From the NCBI GenBank assembly GCA_017886375.1, contig JAGGNB010000108.1:1-33493 (forward strand): a stretch of 33,493 bases of DNA, written 5' to 3'. Source of the DNA: Octadecabacter sp. (GTDB lineage: Bacteria > Pseudomonadota > Alphaproteobacteria > Rhodobacterales > Rhodobacteraceae). Below are positions 9,104-26,083 of this stretch, piece by piece. The position numbers and the translations under genes are program-made. Positions within the stretch are counted from its first letter, which is position 1. Every line of letters starts with the position of its first letter. The notes below the pieces were generated by a model. It searched no databases. It saw only the letters and a list, made by a program, of their open reading frames with translations, and was not told the DNA's origin.

Positions 9104-9137
9104 AGGTTGTTCGTTTAACGCAACCTGCAGCAATTTG

Positions 9138-9175
9138 GCAATTTCATTGCGCATTATGGCATATATAATTGCGCA
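9138..9175. promoter_or_regulatory. Candidate Lrp-type operator: ATTGCGCA repeated at 22-bp spacing
   Basis: ATTGCGCA occurs at 9146-9153 and again at 9168-9175, exactly 22 bp (two helical turns) apart. The first copy is also part of a small dyad GCAAT-TTC-ATTGC (9138-9150), and GCGCATTAT faces ATAATTGCGC across the AT-rich centre. It lies between the divergent starts at 9103 and 9177. Such phased AT-rich sites suit an octameric Lrp-like protein. Confidence 0.45.
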
Positions 9176-9176
9176 G

Positions 9177-9809
9177 ATGAGCTATGAAATTTTCCTCGCC
9201 CTGCTTGGCTTTGCCTTTGTCGCAACCGTGACACCGGGACCGAACAACACGATGCTGATGGCGTCGGGCGCGAATTTTGGCGTCTGGCGCACGCTGCCGC
9301 ATATGTTTGGTGTGACGGTCGGGTTCACGGTGATGATCGCGCTGGTCGGTGTCGGGTTGATGCAGATATTTGACACCTTTCCCTTCACGGACAGGATTCT
9401 GAAAATCGTGTCGATCGCCTATCTGTTGTGGCTGGCGTGGAAAATCGCGACAGCGGCGCCAAGGTTAGCAGATGCACCCGAAACCGCGGGTGTGCCGCTG
9501 ACATTCTTGCAGGCGGCGGCGTTCCAATGGGTGAATCCCAAGGCATGGTCGATGGGCGTTTATGCAATCACCACCTATGCCACCGACGCGGATGGATCAC
9601 GCGCGCTGTGGGCTGTCGCCGTCGTCGCGCTGTCATTCGGCGCGGTGAGCATGCCCTGCATCGCATCTTGGACGGCTTTGGGCCAACAGATGCGGCGATT
9701 TTTGACGTCACCGCGCCGATTGCGCACCTTTAACATCATAATGGCAGTGGTGTTGGTGCTGACGTTGGTACCGGTGGTGTTTCCCAACCTGTTCACCGGC
9801 GCGACTTGA
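9177..9809 (+). CDS. LysE/RhtB-family amino-acid exporter
   Basis: The 210-aa inner-membrane protein has about six hydrophobic segments and the family signature near the N-terminus, ATVTPGPNNTMLMASGANFG. It also carries the FQWVNPKAW motif in mid-protein. LysE/RhtB proteins export amino acids or analogues by proton antiport. ATG 9177 was chosen over upstream in-frame TTG (9135) and ATG (9156), because the conserved sequence begins SYEIFLALLGF. Divergent pairing with the Lrp-like gene suggests control by it. The substrate is unknown. Confidence 0.9.
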   Translation: MSYEIFLALLGFAFVATVTPGPNNTMLMASGANFGVWRTLPHMFGVTVGFTVMIALVGVGLMQIFDTFPFTDRILKIVSIAYLLWLAWKIATAAPRLADAPETAGVPLTFLQAAAFQWVNPKAWSMGVYAITTYATDADGSRALWAVAVVALSFGAVSMPCIASWTALGQQMRRFLTSPRRLRTFNIIMAVVLVLTLVPVVFPNLFTGAT

Positions 9810-9840
9810 CGGGCTAGGCGCGACATGACGGTCTAGGCGC
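9803..9840. repeat. 19-bp tandem duplication across converging stop codons
   Basis: GACTTGACGGGCTAGGCGC (9803-9821) is followed directly by GACATGACGGTCTAGGCGC (9822-9840); two bases differ. The first copy contains the TGA of the exporter gene. The second contains the TAG (9833-9835) of the minus-strand gene. Confidence 0.8.
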
Positions 9841-12867: not shown

Positions 12868-12879
12868 ACGTTCTGTCTT

Positions 12880-12944
12880 GCGCGCCAAAGGCGCGCGCCC
12901 CTGCCCGCCGCAGGCGCAGATGTTGGCCGCCGCAGGCGCAGATG
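12880..12944. repeat. Hairpin and tandem 16-bp repeat before the pyruvate carboxylase gene
   Basis: GCGCGCC-AAA-GGCGCGC (12880-12896) is a perfect 7-bp hairpin with a 3-nt loop. It is followed by GCCGCAGGCGCAGATG at 12907-12922, repeated exactly at 12929-12944 (22-bp period). The rest of the 12751-13030 gap shows no gene. Confidence 0.75.
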
Positions 12945-13030
12945 ATCACCGCCATTGCCAACAGCTTTCAGTTTACACTCTCAAATTTATACTGATAAAT
13001 GCTGCAACTGCAAAATAAAGGACCTGACCC

Positions 13031-14608
13031 ATGGCTGACTTCAAGAAAATCCTGATCGCCAATCGGGGTGAAATCGCCATTCGCATCATGCGTGCCGCCA
13101 ACGAGATGGGTAAGAAGACTGTCGCGGTCTATGCCGAAGAAGACAAACTCGGGTTGCACCGGTTCAAAGCCGACGAAGCCTACCGCATCGGCGAAGGCCT
13201 TGGCCCCGTTGCCGCCTACCTCAGCATCGATGAGGTCATTCGCGTCGCCCTGCAATGTGGCGCAGACGCGATCCACCCCGGCTATGGCCTGCTGTCCGAA
13301 AACCCCGATTTCGTCGATGCCTGCGTCGCCAACAACATCAAATTCATCGGCCCGCGCGCCGAAACCATGCGCCAGCTCGGCGACAAAGCAAGCGCGCGAC
13401 GCGTCGCTGTTGAGGCAGGCGTGCCGGTTATCCCCGCCACCGAAGTGCTTGGCGATGACATGGCGGCCATTAAGAAAGAGGCCGCAGCCGTTGGCTATCC
13501 GCTGATGCTCAAGGCGTCATGGGGCGGTGGCGGGCGCGGTATGCGCGCCATTATGGATGAATCCGAGCTTGAGGAAAAAGTTCTTGAGGGTCGCCGTGAG
13601 GCGGACGCGGCCTTTGGTAATTCCGAAGGCTACCTTGAAAAGATGATCATCAAAGCCCGCCACGTTGAGGTTCAGATCCTTGGCGACAGTCACGGCGCGA
13701 TTTATCACCTGTGGGAGCGCGATTGTTCGGTGCAACGGCGCAACCAAAAGGTCGTCGAACGCGCGCCCGCACCGTATTTGTCGGGCACACAGCGCGAACA
13801 GATTTGCGCCTTGGGTAAGAAAATCTGCGAACACGTGAACTACGAATGTGCTGGCACGGTCGAATTCCTGATGGATATGGACAGCGGCGAATTCTTTTTT
13901 ATCGAAGTCAATCCGCGCGTTCAGGTTGAACACACCGTCACCGAAGAAGTCACCGGCATCGACATCGTGCAGGCGCAGATCAAGATCGCCGAGGGCAAAT
14001 CGCTGGTCGAAGCCACCGGCTGCGCCAGCCAGTACGATGTAAAGCTCGACGGTCACGCGCTGCAATGTCGTGTCACCACCGAAGATCCGTCCAACAATTT
14101 CATCCCCGATTATGGCCGCATCCAGACCTATCGCAGCGCCACGGGCATGGGCATCCGCCTCGACGGAGGCACCGCCTATTCTGGCGCGGTCATCACGCGC
14201 TATTACGACAGCCTGCTGACCAAAGTCACCGCTTGGGCGCCGACACCGGACGCCGCAATTGCGCGCATGGACCGCGCGTTGCGTGAATTCCGCATCAGGG
14301 GTGTGTCCACCAACATCGCGTTTGTGGAAAACCTGCTGAAACATCCAACGTTTCTCAACAACGAATATCACACCAAATTCATCGACCAGACGCCGGAGCT
14401 GTTTGATTTCAAACCGCGCCGTGACCGCGCGACCAAGATCCTGACCTATATTGCGGACATCACCGTCAACGGGCATCCCGAAACCGCGGGCCGCCCGAAA
14501 CCCGACGCCAGAGCGGCCCAGCCCAAGGCCCCGACCCAGCGCACCAAAGACATCCCGAACGGAACCCGCCACATTCTGGATGCGTCCATTTGGGCCGTGG
14601 CCGATTGA
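13031..14608 (+). CDS. pyc: Pyruvate carboxylase, biotin-carboxylase half (split gene)
   Basis: These 525 residues correspond to the N-terminal half of the single-chain pyruvate carboxylase, which charges biotin with CO2 using ATP and bicarbonate. Visible parts: biotin-carboxylase N-domain (KKILIANRGEIAIRI), ATP-grasp glycine loop GGGGRG (165-170), the catalytic segment EVNPRVQVEH (292-301), and the linker ITVNGHPETAG leading into the transferase half. All are intact. The frame then stops with TGA at 14606-14608, exactly where homologues run on through VADW into the carboxyltransferase domain. Adding one G (TGATG to TGGATG) restores a continuous ORF. ATG 13031 follows AAAGGACCTGACCC. Confidence 0.95.
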   Translation: MADFKKILIANRGEIAIRIMRAANEMGKKTVAVYAEEDKLGLHRFKADEAYRIGEGLGPVAAYLSIDEVIRVALQCGADAIHPGYGLLSENPDFVDACVANNIKFIGPRAETMRQLGDKASARRVAVEAGVPVIPATEVLGDDMAAIKKEAAAVGYPLMLKASWGGGGRGMRAIMDESELEEKVLEGRREADAAFGNSEGYLEKMIIKARHVEVQILGDSHGAIYHLWERDCSVQRRNQKVVERAPAPYLSGTQREQICALGKKICEHVNYECAGTVEFLMDMDSGEFFFIEVNPRVQVEHTVTEEVTGIDIVQAQIKIAEGKSLVEATGCASQYDVKLDGHALQCRVTTEDPSNNFIPDYGRIQTYRSATGMGIRLDGGTAYSGAVITRYYDSLLTKVTAWAPTPDAAIARMDRALREFRIRGVSTNIAFVENLLKHPTFLNNEYHTKFIDQTPELFDFKPRRDRATKILTYIADITVNGHPETAGRPKPDARAAQPKAPTQRTKDIPNGTRHILDASIWAVAD

Positions 14609-16497
14609 TGCGCGAAACAATTACTTATACCGATACGACCATGCGCGACGGCCACCAATCTTTGCTCGCCACGCGCATGCGATCAATCGATATGATCCGC
14701 GTTGCGCCTACGTATGCTGCCAATATGTCGGGTCTGTTTTCCATGGAATGCTGGGGCGGTGCGACGTTTGATGTGGCCTACCGGTTCTTGCAGGAATGTC
14801 CGTGGCAGCGCCTGCGCGACATCCGTGCGGCCATGCCCAATATCATGACGCAAATGTTGCTGCGCGCATCCAACGGCGTCGGCTACACCAACTATCCCGA
14901 CAACGTGGTGCAGGAATTTGTCCGCCAAGCGGCCGTATCCGGCGTCGATGTATTTCGCGTGTTTGACAGCCTCAACTGGGTCGAAAACATGCGCGTTGCG
15001 ATGGATGCAGTTATTGAGGCCAACAAGGTCTGCGAAGGCACGATTTGCTACACGGGCGATATGCTGGACCCGAACCGGTCAAAGTATGACCTGAAATACT
15101 ATGTCGGTATGGCCAAAGAGATGGAAAAGGCCGGAGCGCACGTGCTTGGCCTGAAAGACATGGCCGGGTTGATGAAACACGGCACCGCGTCCGTGTTGAT
15201 CAAGACCCTGAAAGACGAGGTCGGCCTGCCGATCCATTTCCACACTCACGACACGTCTGGCGCTGCAATCGCCACCGTTTTGGCGGCGTCCGCAGCAGGC
15301 GTGGATTGCATCGACGCGGCGATGGACAGTTTTTCGGGCAACACCAGTCAGCCGACAATGGGCTCGATCGTCGAGTCGCTGAAATGCACGGATCGCGACA
15401 CTGGCCTCGATATTTCTGCGATCCGCGAGATCAGCAACTATTGGGAAACCGTACGCGGGCACTACACACCTTTTGAGTCCGGCCTACAGGCCCCCGCGTC
15501 AGAGGTGTATTTGCACGAAATGCCCGGTGGTCAGTTCACCAACCTCAAGGCGCAGGCGCGCAGCCTTGGGCTGGAAGACCGCTGGCACGAGGTGGCGCAG
15601 ACCTATGCCGACGTGAACCAGATGTTCGGTGATATCGTCAAAGTGACGCCGTCTTCCAAGGTGGTTGGCGACATGGCGTTGATGATGGTCAGCCAGAACC
15701 TGACACGCGCGCAGGTCGAAGACCCTGACAGTGATGTCAGCTTCCCCGATTCAGTGGTGGACATGATGCGCGGCAACCTTGGCCAACCCCCCGGCGGTTT
15801 TCCTGACGCCATCGTCAAAAAGGTCCTGAAGGACGAAAAGCCGAACCTGACCCGGCCCGGCAAACATCTTAAGCCTGTCGATTTCGCGGCGGTGCGTGCT
15901 GAATTGGCTGAAAAGCTGGACGGCGCACCGTTCGACGACGAAGACCTGAACGGCTATCTTATGTATCCCAAGGTCTACACCGATTACGCCCACCGTCACG
16001 AGATTTACGGGCCCGTGCGCACCCTACCGACACGCACGTTCTTTTATGGTATGGAGCCGTCCGAGGAAATCTCTGCCGAAATCGACCCTGGCAAGACGCT
16101 GGAAATCCGCCTGCAAGCGGTGGCCGAAACCAATGACGAGGGCGAGGTAAAGGTGTTCTTTGAACTCAACGGCCAACCCCGCACGATCCGCGTGCCAAAC
16201 CGATCGTCCGACGCCACGACCCTGCAGCGCCCCAAGGCCGAACTTGGCAACGATGCCCATATCGGCGCGCCCATGCCCGGCGTGGTGGCCAGCGTCGTGG
16301 TCACGGCAGGGCAAGCCGTCAAAGAAGGCGATTTGTTGTTGACCATCGAAGCGATGAAGATGGAAACTGGCATCCACGCCGAACGCGACGCGACCGTCAA
16401 AACCATCCACGTGATGGCGGGAAGTCAGATCGACGCTAAGGATTTGCTGATCGAGTTGGCGCGCAAAAGGACGCGCAGCTCACTACGGAAACCATGA
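14608..16497 (+). CDS. pyc: Pyruvate carboxylase, carboxyltransferase and biotin-carrier half (split gene)
   Basis: From ATG 14608 (overlapping the TGA of the first half as TGATG) 629 residues follow. The carboxyltransferase domain has the metal/pyruvate site TTMRDGHQSLLATR (10-23), LGLKDMAGL with the lysine that is carbamylated in the family, and HFHTHDTSG metal-binding histidines. The biotinyl domain carries EAMKMETG with K584 (AAG 16357-16359) as biotin site. Together the two halves total 1154 residues, matching the usual single chain of about 1150. No Shine-Dalgarno sequence is obvious before 14608, so expression would rest on reinitiation or a frameshift. The tail RKRTRSSLRKP extends beyond the usual end. 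Confidence 0.95.
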   Translation: MRETITYTDTTMRDGHQSLLATRMRSIDMIRVAPTYAANMSGLFSMECWGGATFDVAYRFLQECPWQRLRDIRAAMPNIMTQMLLRASNGVGYTNYPDNVVQEFVRQAAVSGVDVFRVFDSLNWVENMRVAMDAVIEANKVCEGTICYTGDMLDPNRSKYDLKYYVGMAKEMEKAGAHVLGLKDMAGLMKHGTASVLIKTLKDEVGLPIHFHTHDTSGAAIATVLAASAAGVDCIDAAMDSFSGNTSQPTMGSIVESLKCTDRDTGLDISAIREISNYWETVRGHYTPFESGLQAPASEVYLHEMPGGQFTNLKAQARSLGLEDRWHEVAQTYADVNQMFGDIVKVTPSSKVVGDMALMMVSQNLTRAQVEDPDSDVSFPDSVVDMMRGNLGQPPGGFPDAIVKKVLKDEKPNLTRPGKHLKPVDFAAVRAELAEKLDGAPFDDEDLNGYLMYPKVYTDYAHRHEIYGPVRTLPTRTFFYGMEPSEEISAEIDPGKTLEIRLQAVAETNDEGEVKVFFELNGQPRTIRVPNRSSDATTLQRPKAELGNDAHIGAPMPGVVASVVVTAGQAVKEGDLLLTIEAMKMETGIHAERDATVKTIHVMAGSQIDAKDLLIELARKRTRSSLRKP

Positions 16498-22835: not shown

Positions 22836-22880
22836 AATTATTTATTTCAGATCACTAGAGTCCCTTATTAAAGTGATACT

Positions 22881-23267
22881 TTAATTGCGGGTCCACGTTC
22901 CGCCATCGCGGCAAATACCGAATACACAGCCAGATACCGCTAGCGTATCGCCGGTCAGCTGCAGGCGCGAGTTGTAGGTTTTGTCACGATCTGGCGACCA
23001 GACCTGACCCGTGTAGGCGCCCTCGCCCTGCGCCACTGTATCAAAAATGATCTGACGGCCAACATTTGGCGATGCGAACTGCGCACCGGATGGATCGAAC
23101 GACGCGATCAACGTGCCACACAGGGCCGCACCACATGGTGCAACTTCGACCAGTCCGCGGTTGCCATTGTCATCCGCCGGTGTTGACCAACGGCCTTCAA
23201 GATCATCGGCGTACGCAGCACTTGCCAGCCCGATAACGGCGGCGATTGTAAATGCGAGTTTCTTCAT
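22881..23267 (-). CDS. DUF2147 exported protein
   Basis: The 128-aa protein has a signal peptide (MKKLAFTIAAVIGLASAAYA, cleavage after AYA) and the DUF2147 body: LEGRWSTPADD, paired cysteines in APCGAALCGTL, and SGCVFGICRDGGTW. It is predicted to be periplasmic; the function is unknown. Start at 23265-23267 because GGAGG lies 10 nt upstream and the signal peptide begins there. It lies antisense between hisH and hisA. Confidence 0.85.
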   Translation of the reverse strand: MKKLAFTIAAVIGLASAAYADDLEGRWSTPADDNGNRGLVEVAPCGAALCGTLIASFDPSGAQFASPNVGRQIIFDTVAQGEGAYTGQVWSPDRDKTYNSRLQLTGDTLAVSGCVFGICRDGGTWTRN

Positions 23268-23400
23268 TTTGTGTCTCCTCCCTGAGATTGCGCAGATATT
23301 GGCCGCGAAATTCGATTCCATACAAGCATAACGTAGGGTCGCGTTGCATCTGGCGCCGCCGCGTGCATAAAAGCGCCAACGCGAAACCACAGGTGCCAGC

Positions 23401-24120
23401 ATGATCCTTTATCCCGCAATCGACCTCAAAGACGGGCAAGCCGTGCGGCTTGTGCATGGCGACATGGATCAATCGACGGTGTTCAACGACGATCCGGCCG
23501 CGCAGGCCCGTGAATTCGTTGATGCGGGCTGTGAATGGCTGCACTTGGTCGACCTGAACGGCGCCTTTGCCGGTGAGCCGATCAACGCCGCCCCCGTCGA
23601 AGCGATCCTTGCCGCCTGCCCCGTGCCCACGCAACTTGGCGGTGGCATTCGCGACATGGCGACGATTGAACGCTGGCTGGATCGTGGGCTGACCCGCGTG
23701 ATCCTTGGCACCGTGGCTGTCGAAAACCCCGATCTGGTGCGCCAAGCGGCGCGCGCATTCCCGAACCAAGTCGCCGTCGGATTGGACGCGCGCAACGGGT
23801 TTGTGGCCACCAAAGGCTGGGCGCATGAAACCGACATCAATGTCACCGATCTGGCCAGATCGTTCGAGGACGCCGGCATCGCCGCGATCATCTACACCGA
23901 CATCCTGCGCGACGGCGCAATGAAGGGCCCAAATATCGCCGCAACCGAAAGCCTGGCCCGCGCCGTGAACATTCCCGTCATCGCCTCTGGCGGCGTGTCA
24001 TCCTTGGCCGACCTTGAGGCGCTCAAGGCGACGGGCGTGATTTCCGGCGCGATCTCGGGGCGGGCATTGTATGATGGGGCGATTGATCTGGCGACCGCCC
24101 TATCGGTTCTTAAAGGCTAG
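23401..24120 (+). CDS. hisA: Phosphoribosylformimino-5-aminoimidazole carboxamide ribotide isomerase
   Basis: This 239-aa (beta/alpha)8 barrel isomerises ProFAR to PRFAR. The first catalytic aspartate is D8 in [15 protein letters not shown], the second lies in [14 protein letters not shown]. Phosphate-binding loops are LGGGIRD and ASGGVSSL. Because a divergent gene sits upstream, hisA must have its own promoter in 23268-23400 or be read through from hisH. Confidence 0.97.
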
Positions 24121-24123
24121 GTA

Positions 24124-24564
24124 TTACAGGCCCGCGGCCTGATTTGTCAGGTTTTCCAGTGCGCCACCGATGCGGGTGAACACGTCGGCCTCAAGATCGA
24201 CGTCAAGCCCGTCCATCATGCCAGCAACGTCCTCATAGGTGATGCGCGTTGCTCCGCCCTCATCATAGACCAGCACATGCAGTGGCAACACCAAACCCGC
24301 TCGGATGTCCTGCTGCATCACGGGCGTGCCAAGCATCGGATTGCCGAAAATCAACAGCTGCGCATCTGGCAGCTCCATATCGACGCTCGCTGCCCCTGCT
24401 GCGTGATCCACACGTGCAAACACCGTGGCACCAGCCCCTGTCACGGCCTCTTCAAGGCGATCCATCGTTTCAGTAACTGTCCCGCTCGCGTCTTTGACAA
24501 CCATTTCGGCCCACGCGCCCGTCCCCAACACAGCCAACGCGGCCGCCGCAATCCAAGTTTTCAT
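24124..24564 (-). CDS. DUF302 exported protein
   Basis: The 146-aa protein has a signal peptide (MKTWIAAAALAVLGTGAWA) and a DUF302 domain: TVTETMDRLEEAVTGAGATVFARVDHAAGA, then LLIFGNPMLGTPVMQ and LVLPLHVLVYDE. DUF302 proteins bind small ligands or metals in a few characterised cases; no function can be given here. It is antisense between hisA and hisF, ending 3 bases from the hisA stop. Confidence 0.85.
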   Translation of the reverse strand: MKTWIAAAALAVLGTGAWAEMVVKDASGTVTETMDRLEEAVTGAGATVFARVDHAAGAASVDMELPDAQLLIFGNPMLGTPVMQQDIRAGLVLPLHVLVYDEGGATRITYEDVAGMMDGLDVDLEADVFTRIGGALENLTNQAAGL

Positions 24565-24648
24565 ATCGTTCTCCTTATGTATGTGCGAACCCTACCCGCA
24601 CACAGCTCAAGAGTTCCATTCACGCTTTCGACAGGTTAAACATCGCCC

Positions 24649-25711: not shown

Positions 25712-26007
25712 TCCGCCACATTGCCTTCTTCTCAGCGATTGATCCCAATGACCTCGACGAAATTGAAGCCGGTCTTTGGATCCTGAAAGACAATCCACAC
25801 GCCCTGCGCTTCAGCGTTTCACGCAACCTCGCCTTGGACGAAATTCCCGGCCCACACCCCGATTTCGTGGTCATGGCTGACATCAAAGACACCGCAGCAC
25901 TCGCCGCCTACAAAGCCCACCCGCTCTATGCTGAATCGATCCGCCGCGTGCGGCCGCTGCGCGACATCCGCGTCGCCGCGGACTTAATGGTGGAAGACCC
26001 CTCTTAA
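25708..26007 (+). CDS. Dabb-family (stress-responsive A/B barrel) protein
   Basis: The 99-aa protein starts with the Dabb signature MIRHIAFFSAID and continues with HPDFVVMADIKDTAALAAY, then HPLYAESI. Dabb proteins are small dimeric barrels; a few are enzymes, and most are unassigned. Four-base overlap with hisE puts it in the his operon. A role in histidine metabolism is not implied by the fold. Confidence 0.85.
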   Translation: MIRHIAFFSAIDPNDLDEIEAGLWILKDNPHALRFSVSRNLALDEIPGPHPDFVVMADIKDTAALAAYKAHPLYAESIRRVRPLRDIRVAADLMVEDPS

Positions 26008-26027
26008 GCCCTGTCTTTCTTGCCCCT

Positions 26028-26076
26028 GCCTTTGTCTCAAAAATATCCCGGGGGGCGCAGCGGGGGCAGCGCCCCC
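26028..26076. repeat. Dispersed intergenic palindromic element, copy 2
   Basis: GCCTTTGTCTCAAAAATATC followed by the GC-rich half (GGGGGGCGCAGCGGGGG, then CAGCGCCCCC) matches the element at 12819-12867 with a few differences. GGGGCGC faces GCGCCCC, so it can fold. It lies between the converging Dabb and CoA-binding genes and may end both transcripts. Confidence 0.75.
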
Positions 26077-26083
26077 TCCCCGC

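What the first reader, a model, noticed from the sequence alone, without database searches (positions are those of the whole stretch)
14560..14650. Pyruvate carboxylase split into two genes by a one-base change that creates TGATG
The biotin-carboxylase half and the carboxyltransferase/biotin half are each complete but lie in different frames. At the joint, TGATG supplies a stop and an overlapping start. Inserting one G (TGGATG) restores the VADW-M sequence typical of the single-chain enzyme. No other damage is seen in about 3.4 kb, so either it is a sequencing error or the gene has turned into a translationally coupled two-subunit enzyme by a single deletion.
Basis: partly seen in the sequence, partly recalled or inferred. 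Interest (0 to 1): 0.72.

Follow-up and report, generated by a model that had tools for sequence, protein, structure and literature searches.

The report
Pyruvate carboxylase gene with clustered deletions
In this marine bacterium's assembled genome the gene for a central metabolic enzyme, pyruvate carboxylase, is cut in two by a tight cluster of small deletions, which looks more like a recent local defect or an assembly error than a newly evolved two-part enzyme.

Summary
The two frames and the TGATG joint are really there: a biotin-carboxylase ORF (13031-14608) and a carboxyltransferase/biotin ORF (14608-16497). The cause is not a one-base change. Against the closest relative found (G015, 95.6% identical, syntenic) the joint carries four separate deletions (3, 1, 5, 1 bases; net 10) within 37 bp; the rest of the aligned gene has none. 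The normal stop codon is also lost, adding a 12-residue tail. None of 29 aligned relatives has these gaps. Spacing just before the carboxyltransferase domain is the same in 117 of 117 relative loci and differs here. Both halves show strong purifying selection against G015 (dN/dS 0.016, 0.019), so any split is recent. The assembly is not generally noisy: of 58 other ORFs compared, 3 were flagged and none looks a genuine coding frameshift. TGATG follows automatically when one G is lost from the conserved Trp-Met codons, so it is no sign of evolved coupling. Best reading: a singleton disrupted allele, a real recent lesion (0.45) or a local assembly error (0.40). A working two-subunit enzyme (0.12) is not excluded. 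Reads over 14550-14660 would decide.

The parts
13031..14608 (+). upstream ORF, 525 aa: biotin carboxylase domain plus the stretch before the carboxyltransferase domain; ends VAD-TGA
   Evidence: matches pyruvate carboxylase models NF009554 and TIGR01235 over their N-terminal part, below the curated cut-offs, and pyruvate carboxylase 2qf7 residues 14-535
14608..16497 (+). downstream ORF, 629 aa from ATG 14608: carboxyltransferase and biotin carrier (EAMKME) domains
   Evidence: TIGR01235 positions 530-1142, below its cut-off; over the cut-off of the domain model NF006761 'pyruvate carboxylase subunit B'; 2qf7 residues 551-1161
14606..14610 (+). TGATG: stop of the upstream ORF overlapping the ATG of the downstream ORF; one G fewer than TGG-ATG in G015
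14588..14593 (+). ATTTGG in place of nine bases in G015 (3-base net deletion; residues SGPQ become SIW)
14613..14616 (+). site of a 5-base deletion relative to G015
14628..14629 (+). site of a 1-base deletion relative to G015; with the 5-base deletion it makes 6, so the downstream frame is kept, while the 15 bases between them are identical to G015 but read in another frame
16459..16497 (+). 3' end altered: usual stop after ...IELE lost, tail ARKRTRSSLRKP added, new TGA overlapping the next gene's start

Best explanation
The gene is an ordinary single-chain pyruvate carboxylase that was intact until recently and is now disrupted, in this one genome, by a tight cluster of four small deletions at the join between the biotin-carboxylase and carboxyltransferase parts. 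One of them removes a G from the conserved TGG-ATG codon pair and so creates a stop and an overlapping start. Shown: the four deletions, their clustering, their absence from the relatives aligned, and strong past constraint on both halves. Inferred: that the cluster is a real lesion from one local mutational event; that ribosomes stop at the TGA and some restart at the ATG to give two polypeptides; and that normal enzyme activity is lost or much reduced.
For: The four indels lie within 37 bp and the rest of the aligned gene has none. None of the 29 relatives aligned at the joint (18 of them are all the other same-genus genomes held) has the gaps. W/YM-8 residues-TDT spacing is the same in 117 of 117 loci (111 by motif, 6 by eye) and GT-14-W in all 106 of the 117 loci that hold that pattern; here they are 6 and 13, with the W lost. 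dN/dS against G015 is 0.016 (516 codons) and 0.019 (586 codons), no stops. Of 58 other ORFs, none looks to have a genuine coding frameshift. Polar Octadecabacter genomes are described as carrying unusually many pseudogenes (PMC3646047, passages; that the window is Octadecabacter is inferred).
Against: No reads or second strain could be examined, so a local assembly error fits nearly as well. This is the only pyruvate carboxylase match in the genome and PEP carboxylase was found in 0 of 19 genus genomes, so losing it should be costly (the own genome is only 89.95% complete). Constraint does not look relaxed. The deletions keep the frame within each half (3, and 5+1), mildly unexpected for random damage (about 1 in 9 by my own estimate). 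PMC3711429 expects singletons of this sort to be sequencing errors.
Confidence: 0.45

Rival explanations
1. Local assembly or consensus error: the organism has a normal single-chain gene and the 40-bp patch is wrong in this draft genome.
For: Singleton; the damage hits a stretch whose length is the same in 117 of 117 loci; DNA between the gaps is almost identical to G015, as in a noisy read; draft genome of 225 contigs, 89.95% complete; the only pyruvate carboxylase match, with no PEP carboxylase found to replace it. A survey of frame transitions expects BLASTp-validated singletons to be sequencing errors rather than genuine indels (PMC3711429, section 'Singletons' read).
Against: No frameshift that looks genuine in 58 other ORFs, 61 kb of coding sequence; four separate deletions plus a block substitution are not a usual base-call error; if short reads were used, reads carrying the patch must exist (recalled; the sequencing method is unknown).
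Confidence: 0.4
2. Functional fission: the gene has become two translationally coupled genes whose products assemble into a working two-subunit pyruvate carboxylase, with the freed linker decaying while each half keeps its frame.
For: Both halves are open and strongly conserved; stop and start overlap; the indels preserve frame within each half; the downstream ORF passes the cut-off of the 'pyruvate carboxylase subunit B' domain model; natural two-subunit pyruvate carboxylases exist (PMC5059739, passages); 1-nt stop/start overlap couples EcoKI hsdM and hsdS (PMC3510504, abstract start in a listing); a 'Biotin carboxylase' cluster of 128 frame-transition genes is classed as translational coupling (PMC3711429, passage; which genes these are was not checked).
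Against: TGATG arises automatically from the conserved TGG-ATG pair; none of 29 aligned relatives shares it; both sides of the joint are damaged; bacterial two-subunit enzymes have a hydrophobic interface helix and a BT-like barrel with under 10% identity in the PT region; an engineered split of a Bacillus enzyme gave halves that did not associate (Sueda 2004, recalled, not seen).
Confidence: 0.12
3. Programmed recoding (ribosomal frameshifting) joins the two frames into one chain.
For: Only that the two ORFs overlap for a few codons around the joint.
Against: No slippery run seen at the stop (by eye); the arrangement is absent from the 29 relatives aligned.
Confidence: 0.03

Closest known systems
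Single-chain pyruvate carboxylase (EC 6.4.1.1; TIGR01235, NF009554; PDB 2qf7)
   Same: Same domains in the same order, strong matches over both halves
   Different: Here interrupted before the CT domain; each half alone stays below the single-chain models' cut-offs
Bacterial two-subunit pyruvate carboxylase (alpha = BC, beta = CT+BCCP; e.g. Pseudomonas aeruginosa)
   Same: Two adjacent ORFs divided between BC and CT
   Different: Sequence is of single-chain type; no aligned relative has the split; known two-subunit enzymes have under 10% identity in the PT region and their own interface (PMC5059739, passages)
EcoKI hsdM/hsdS one-base overlap
   Same: Adjacent frames with a 1-nt overlap and coupled translation
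   Different: There an established coupled pair (PMC3510504, abstract start only); here a singleton
Frameshifted alleles / pseudogenes in polar Octadecabacter
   Same: Isolated broken gene in a genus with many pseudogenes (PMC3646047, passages)
   Different: Most of those pseudogenes are linked to transposable elements; this one is a cluster of small deletions

Membership tests
single-chain pyruvate carboxylase | BC, CT and BCCP in one open frame | tested here: not met
   TGA at 14606-14608 and a frame change
single-chain pyruvate carboxylase | model coverage by the two parts together | tested here: met
   TIGR01235 positions 1-515 and 530-1142 of 1143
single-chain pyruvate carboxylase | spacing before the CT domain as in relatives | tested here: not met
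   8 residues in 117 of 117 loci, 6 here
bacterial two-subunit pyruvate carboxylase | BC and CT+BCCP as separate ORFs | tested here: met
   the downstream ORF also passes the NF006761 'subunit B' domain cut-off
bacterial two-subunit pyruvate carboxylase | sequence of the two-subunit type rather than the single-chain type | tested here: not met
   best solved relatives are single-chain (767 and 879 bits); the two-subunit 5ks8 chains score 397 and 321 bits
bacterial two-subunit pyruvate carboxylase | split shared with related genomes | tested here: not met
   29 of 29 aligned relatives unsplit at the joint
bacterial two-subunit pyruvate carboxylase | assembly and activity of separate subunits | not testable with these tools
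   needs biochemistry
translationally coupled gene pair | stop and start within a few bases | tested here: met
   TGATG
translationally coupled gene pair | conservation of the arrangement in relatives | tested here: not met
   0 of 29 aligned relatives
translationally coupled gene pair | restart at the downstream ATG | not testable with these tools
   needs proteomics or a reporter assay
pseudogene | relaxed constraint on the coding sequence | tested here: not met
   dN/dS 0.016 and 0.019 against G015; only a recent inactivation would fit

The most novel reading that the evidence does not exclude
A very recent natural fission of a single-chain pyruvate carboxylase, the only one found in this genome and in a genus where no PEP carboxylase was found, into two coupled genes whose products complement each other through the PT domain, with the freed linker eroding by frame-preserving deletions: an early step from one-chain to two-subunit architecture.
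Probability: 0.1. Interest if true: 0.6.

Novelty: new member of a known kind. Interest (0 to 1): 0.15.

Why it matters
As it stands it is a reminder that a neat TGATG 'gene split' can be a passive result of damage at a conserved TGG-ATG pair, and that comparison with one sister genome turns one base into four deletions. If the split were real and functional, it would be a natural experiment on how a multidomain carboxylase tolerates fission.

Tried and rejected
One-base origin: rejected by alignment to G015 and 28 other relatives. The 29 were the best-scoring places, in which 60 other genomes matched; the rest were not aligned, nor were two further fragments from G002 (L134, L137; both end at contig ends).

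General sequencing noise: rejected by comparing 425,618 bases of G000 (window plus stretches of 40 other contigs) with 1.28 Mb of G015. 93,137 bases aligned; 58 G015 ORFs of at least 120 aa lay fully inside (pyc was not among them, its alignment ending just before the stop); 7 had an indel and 3 were flagged as frame-changing. I judged none a genuine coding frameshift: a variable loop with a net in-frame change of 24 bases; a 1-base loss upstream of the probable start; and a 19-base tandem duplication at the stop codon of the ORF at 9135-9809, where both versions encode 224 aa.

Recombination or chimeric join at the joint: divergence is mosaic, but the best single change point is at 16126, not the joint (log-likelihood gain 10.5 against 3.5; 0 of 500 shuffles reach the best). 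Copy from elsewhere: TGGATGCGTCCATTTG at the joint also occurs at 2534. In shuffled sequence a second copy is not expected (0 of 100 shuffles had two matches), but 5 of 200 control patches of the real window have a match of 16 or more, so I call it weak. Inverted template within 400 bp of the joint: nothing longer than 8 bases. Ribosome-binding strength before ATG 14608 is like that of other starts.

Structure of the CT half: mean pLDDT 51.8, residues 1-94 below 50, so useless for the altered N-terminus; no fold search was made. The exact joint pattern was not found in viral contigs. Literature on engineered splits: searches did not list the Sueda 2004 paper; its result is recalled.

Full report
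What is there. The window (contig C47 of a 225-contig draft genome, 3.26 Mb, 89.95% complete) holds a biotin-carboxylase ORF at 13031-14608 and a carboxyltransferase/biotin-carrier ORF from ATG 14608 to 16497 in another frame. Stop and start overlap as TGATG at 14606-14610. The two proteins together cover the single-chain pyruvate carboxylase model TIGR01235 (positions 1-515 and 530-1142; each below the cut-off alone) and the structure 2qf7 (14-535 and 551-1161). The downstream ORF also passes the cut-off of the domain model NF006761, 'pyruvate carboxylase subunit B'. It is the only PYC_OADA match in the genome.

The organism. G002, a same-genus genome, has a contig (C303) of the same length (4933) and holding the same locus as a record named Octadecabacter sp. 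AQU-05, so the genus is most likely Octadecabacter. The sizes and contig counts of G015 and G006 would fit O. arcticus 238 and O. antarcticus 307 (recalled, not shown).

Not one base but four deletions. G015 is 95.6% identical over this gene and keeps gene order around it. Across the 3.47-kb alignment there are exactly four indels: 3, 1, 5 and 1 bases missing in the window at about 14592, 14607, 14615 and 14628. The first is part of a 9-to-6-base replacement. None of the 29 aligned relatives has these gaps, and each reads through the joint in one open frame of at least 682 aa. Eighteen of them are all the other genus genomes held (19 of 19 genus genomes, own included, have the locus). So the deletions arose in the window's lineage or in its assembly. 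Four indels placed uniformly would fall within 37 bp with a chance of 3.5e-6 to 5.0e-6. The 1-base loss makes the stop. The 5- and 1-base losses add to 6, so the downstream frame is kept, but the 15 identical bases between them are read in a different frame (DQKQLLIT becomes ETITYT).

Constant spacing in relatives. Among 117 loci scanned (some hold the same gene twice), 111 hold the strict motif (W, one residue, a gap, then TDTT and RD); in their 106 distinct sequences the gap is always 8. The 6 without the strict motif were inspected: four have TDTA or TDTS, one has YM for WM, one differs further on (RDSH); all keep 8. GT-to-W is 14 in all 106 of the 117 loci that hold that pattern. The window has 6 and 13, and the W is lost.

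How common is the split? A search of 394 genomes of the taxonomic family with the downstream protein matched in all, some only weakly. The list of places was cut. Among the listed places (roughly 150) only G000 has a short open frame (690 aa) not due to a contig end. G225 (792) and G313 (897) run into contig ends, and G102 (1062) lacks a normal N-terminus near its contig end but is open through the joint.

Selection. Against G015 the first half has 67 synonymous and 4 nonsynonymous differences in 516 codons (dN/dS 0.016) and the second 45 and 3 in 586 (0.019), joint excluded, no stops. Polarised with G006, the window branch has 39 synonymous and 3 nonsynonymous changes and the G015 branch 41 and 1. 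Both halves were thus under strong constraint, and any loss of function is recent. The halves differ in synonymous divergence, but divergence is mosaic along the gene and the best change point is not at the joint.

Is the assembly noisy? Of 29 G015 ORFs in the compared stretch, 18 map to the window; two map in two frames, pyc and an ORF whose shift lies before the hisA start, which I judge noncoding; two others map only in part. In the wider sample 58 ORFs (61,332 nt) lay fully inside alignments, 3 were flagged, and on inspection none looks a genuine coding frameshift (details under Tried and rejected). General noise is excluded; a local error is not.

Why TGATG is weak evidence of coupling. 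Trp-Met, necessarily TGG-ATG, stands at this place in at least 101 of 106 distinct sequences (listed forms). Losing one G gives TGATG automatically, so an overlapping start needs no selection. Ribosome-binding strength upstream is like that of other starts. Re-initiation at such overlaps does occur (EcoKI hsdM/hsdS, PMC3510504, and phage GA coat/lysis, PMC9955659; abstract starts only), so two polypeptides could be made.

Could the halves work? Motifs that I recall as catalytic or biotinylated are present (TDTTMRD, HFHTHD, EAMKME). Natural two-subunit enzymes differ: under 10% identity in the PT region, and an alpha2beta4 assembly through a hydrophobic helix and a BT-like barrel (PMC5059739, passages). 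The window's sequence is of single-chain type (767 and 879 bits to 2qf7, against 397 and 321 for the two-subunit 5ks8 chains). I recall an engineered split of a Bacillus enzyme whose halves did not associate (Sueda 2004; not seen). PEP carboxylase was found in 0 of 19 genus genomes, 11 of them at least 90% complete, so an inactive enzyme should be costly on sugars and C3 substrates; this counts somewhat for an error or for residual function.

The 3' end. G015, G006 and the other relatives inspected end ...IELE or similar and stop. Here the stop is lost, 12 residues are added, and TGA overlaps the next start. G015 has about 187 more bases between the two genes. The effect is unknown.

Verdict. 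A singleton, clustered, multi-deletion disruption of an ordinary gene. Real recent lesion 0.45, local assembly error 0.40, functional two-part enzyme 0.12, recoding 0.03. The deciding data are reads, which these tools do not hold. A survey of prokaryotic frame transitions expects BLASTp-validated singletons to be sequencing errors (PMC3711429, section read), while polar Octadecabacter are described as rich in pseudogenes (PMC3646047, passages); the two priors pull in opposite directions.

Noticed in passing
16459-16497: pyc has lost its usual stop codon; a 12-residue tail ARKRTRSSLRKP is added and the new stop overlaps the next gene's start; G015 has about 187 more bases here.
   Followed up: partly
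12873-12992: Intergenic stretch upstream of pyc is about 360 bases shorter than in G015 and unlike it; G015 has a small ORF there that the window lacks (by eye).
   Followed up: no
26000-26083: Short dispersed repeat: 33 of the 48 matches of a 14.5-kb query in G015 and G006 are to this stretch alone; one copy in each lies roughly 150-550 bases upstream of pyc.
   Followed up: no
22850-23349: About 24-25% divergence from G015 in a 500-bp stretch before hisA, while the flanking 500 bp on either side differ by about 4-11%.
   Followed up: no
24101-24636: Between hisA and hisF G015 holds about 1 kb more, with ORFs of 366 and 101 aa that have no match in the window.
   Followed up: no
16126-16397: Last 270 bp of the compared pyc stretch show no difference from G015 against about 4% before it; possible recent recombination tract.
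   Followed up: partly
2534-2549 and 14577-14592: Same 16-mer TGGATGCGTCCATTTG in the NuoF-like formate dehydrogenase gene (931-2646) and at the pyc joint, where G015 lacks its last five bases; weak (5 of 200 control patches have a match as long).
   Followed up: partly
9798-9820: 19-base tandem duplication at the stop codon of a LysE/RhtB-like exporter gene relative to G015; the protein length is unchanged.
   Followed up: partly
L186:8399-8456: Cluster of six indels (net 24 bases, in frame) against G015 in a variable loop of an ORF that looks like a transporter permease (by eye); substitutions are dense there, unlike the pyc joint.
   Followed up: partly
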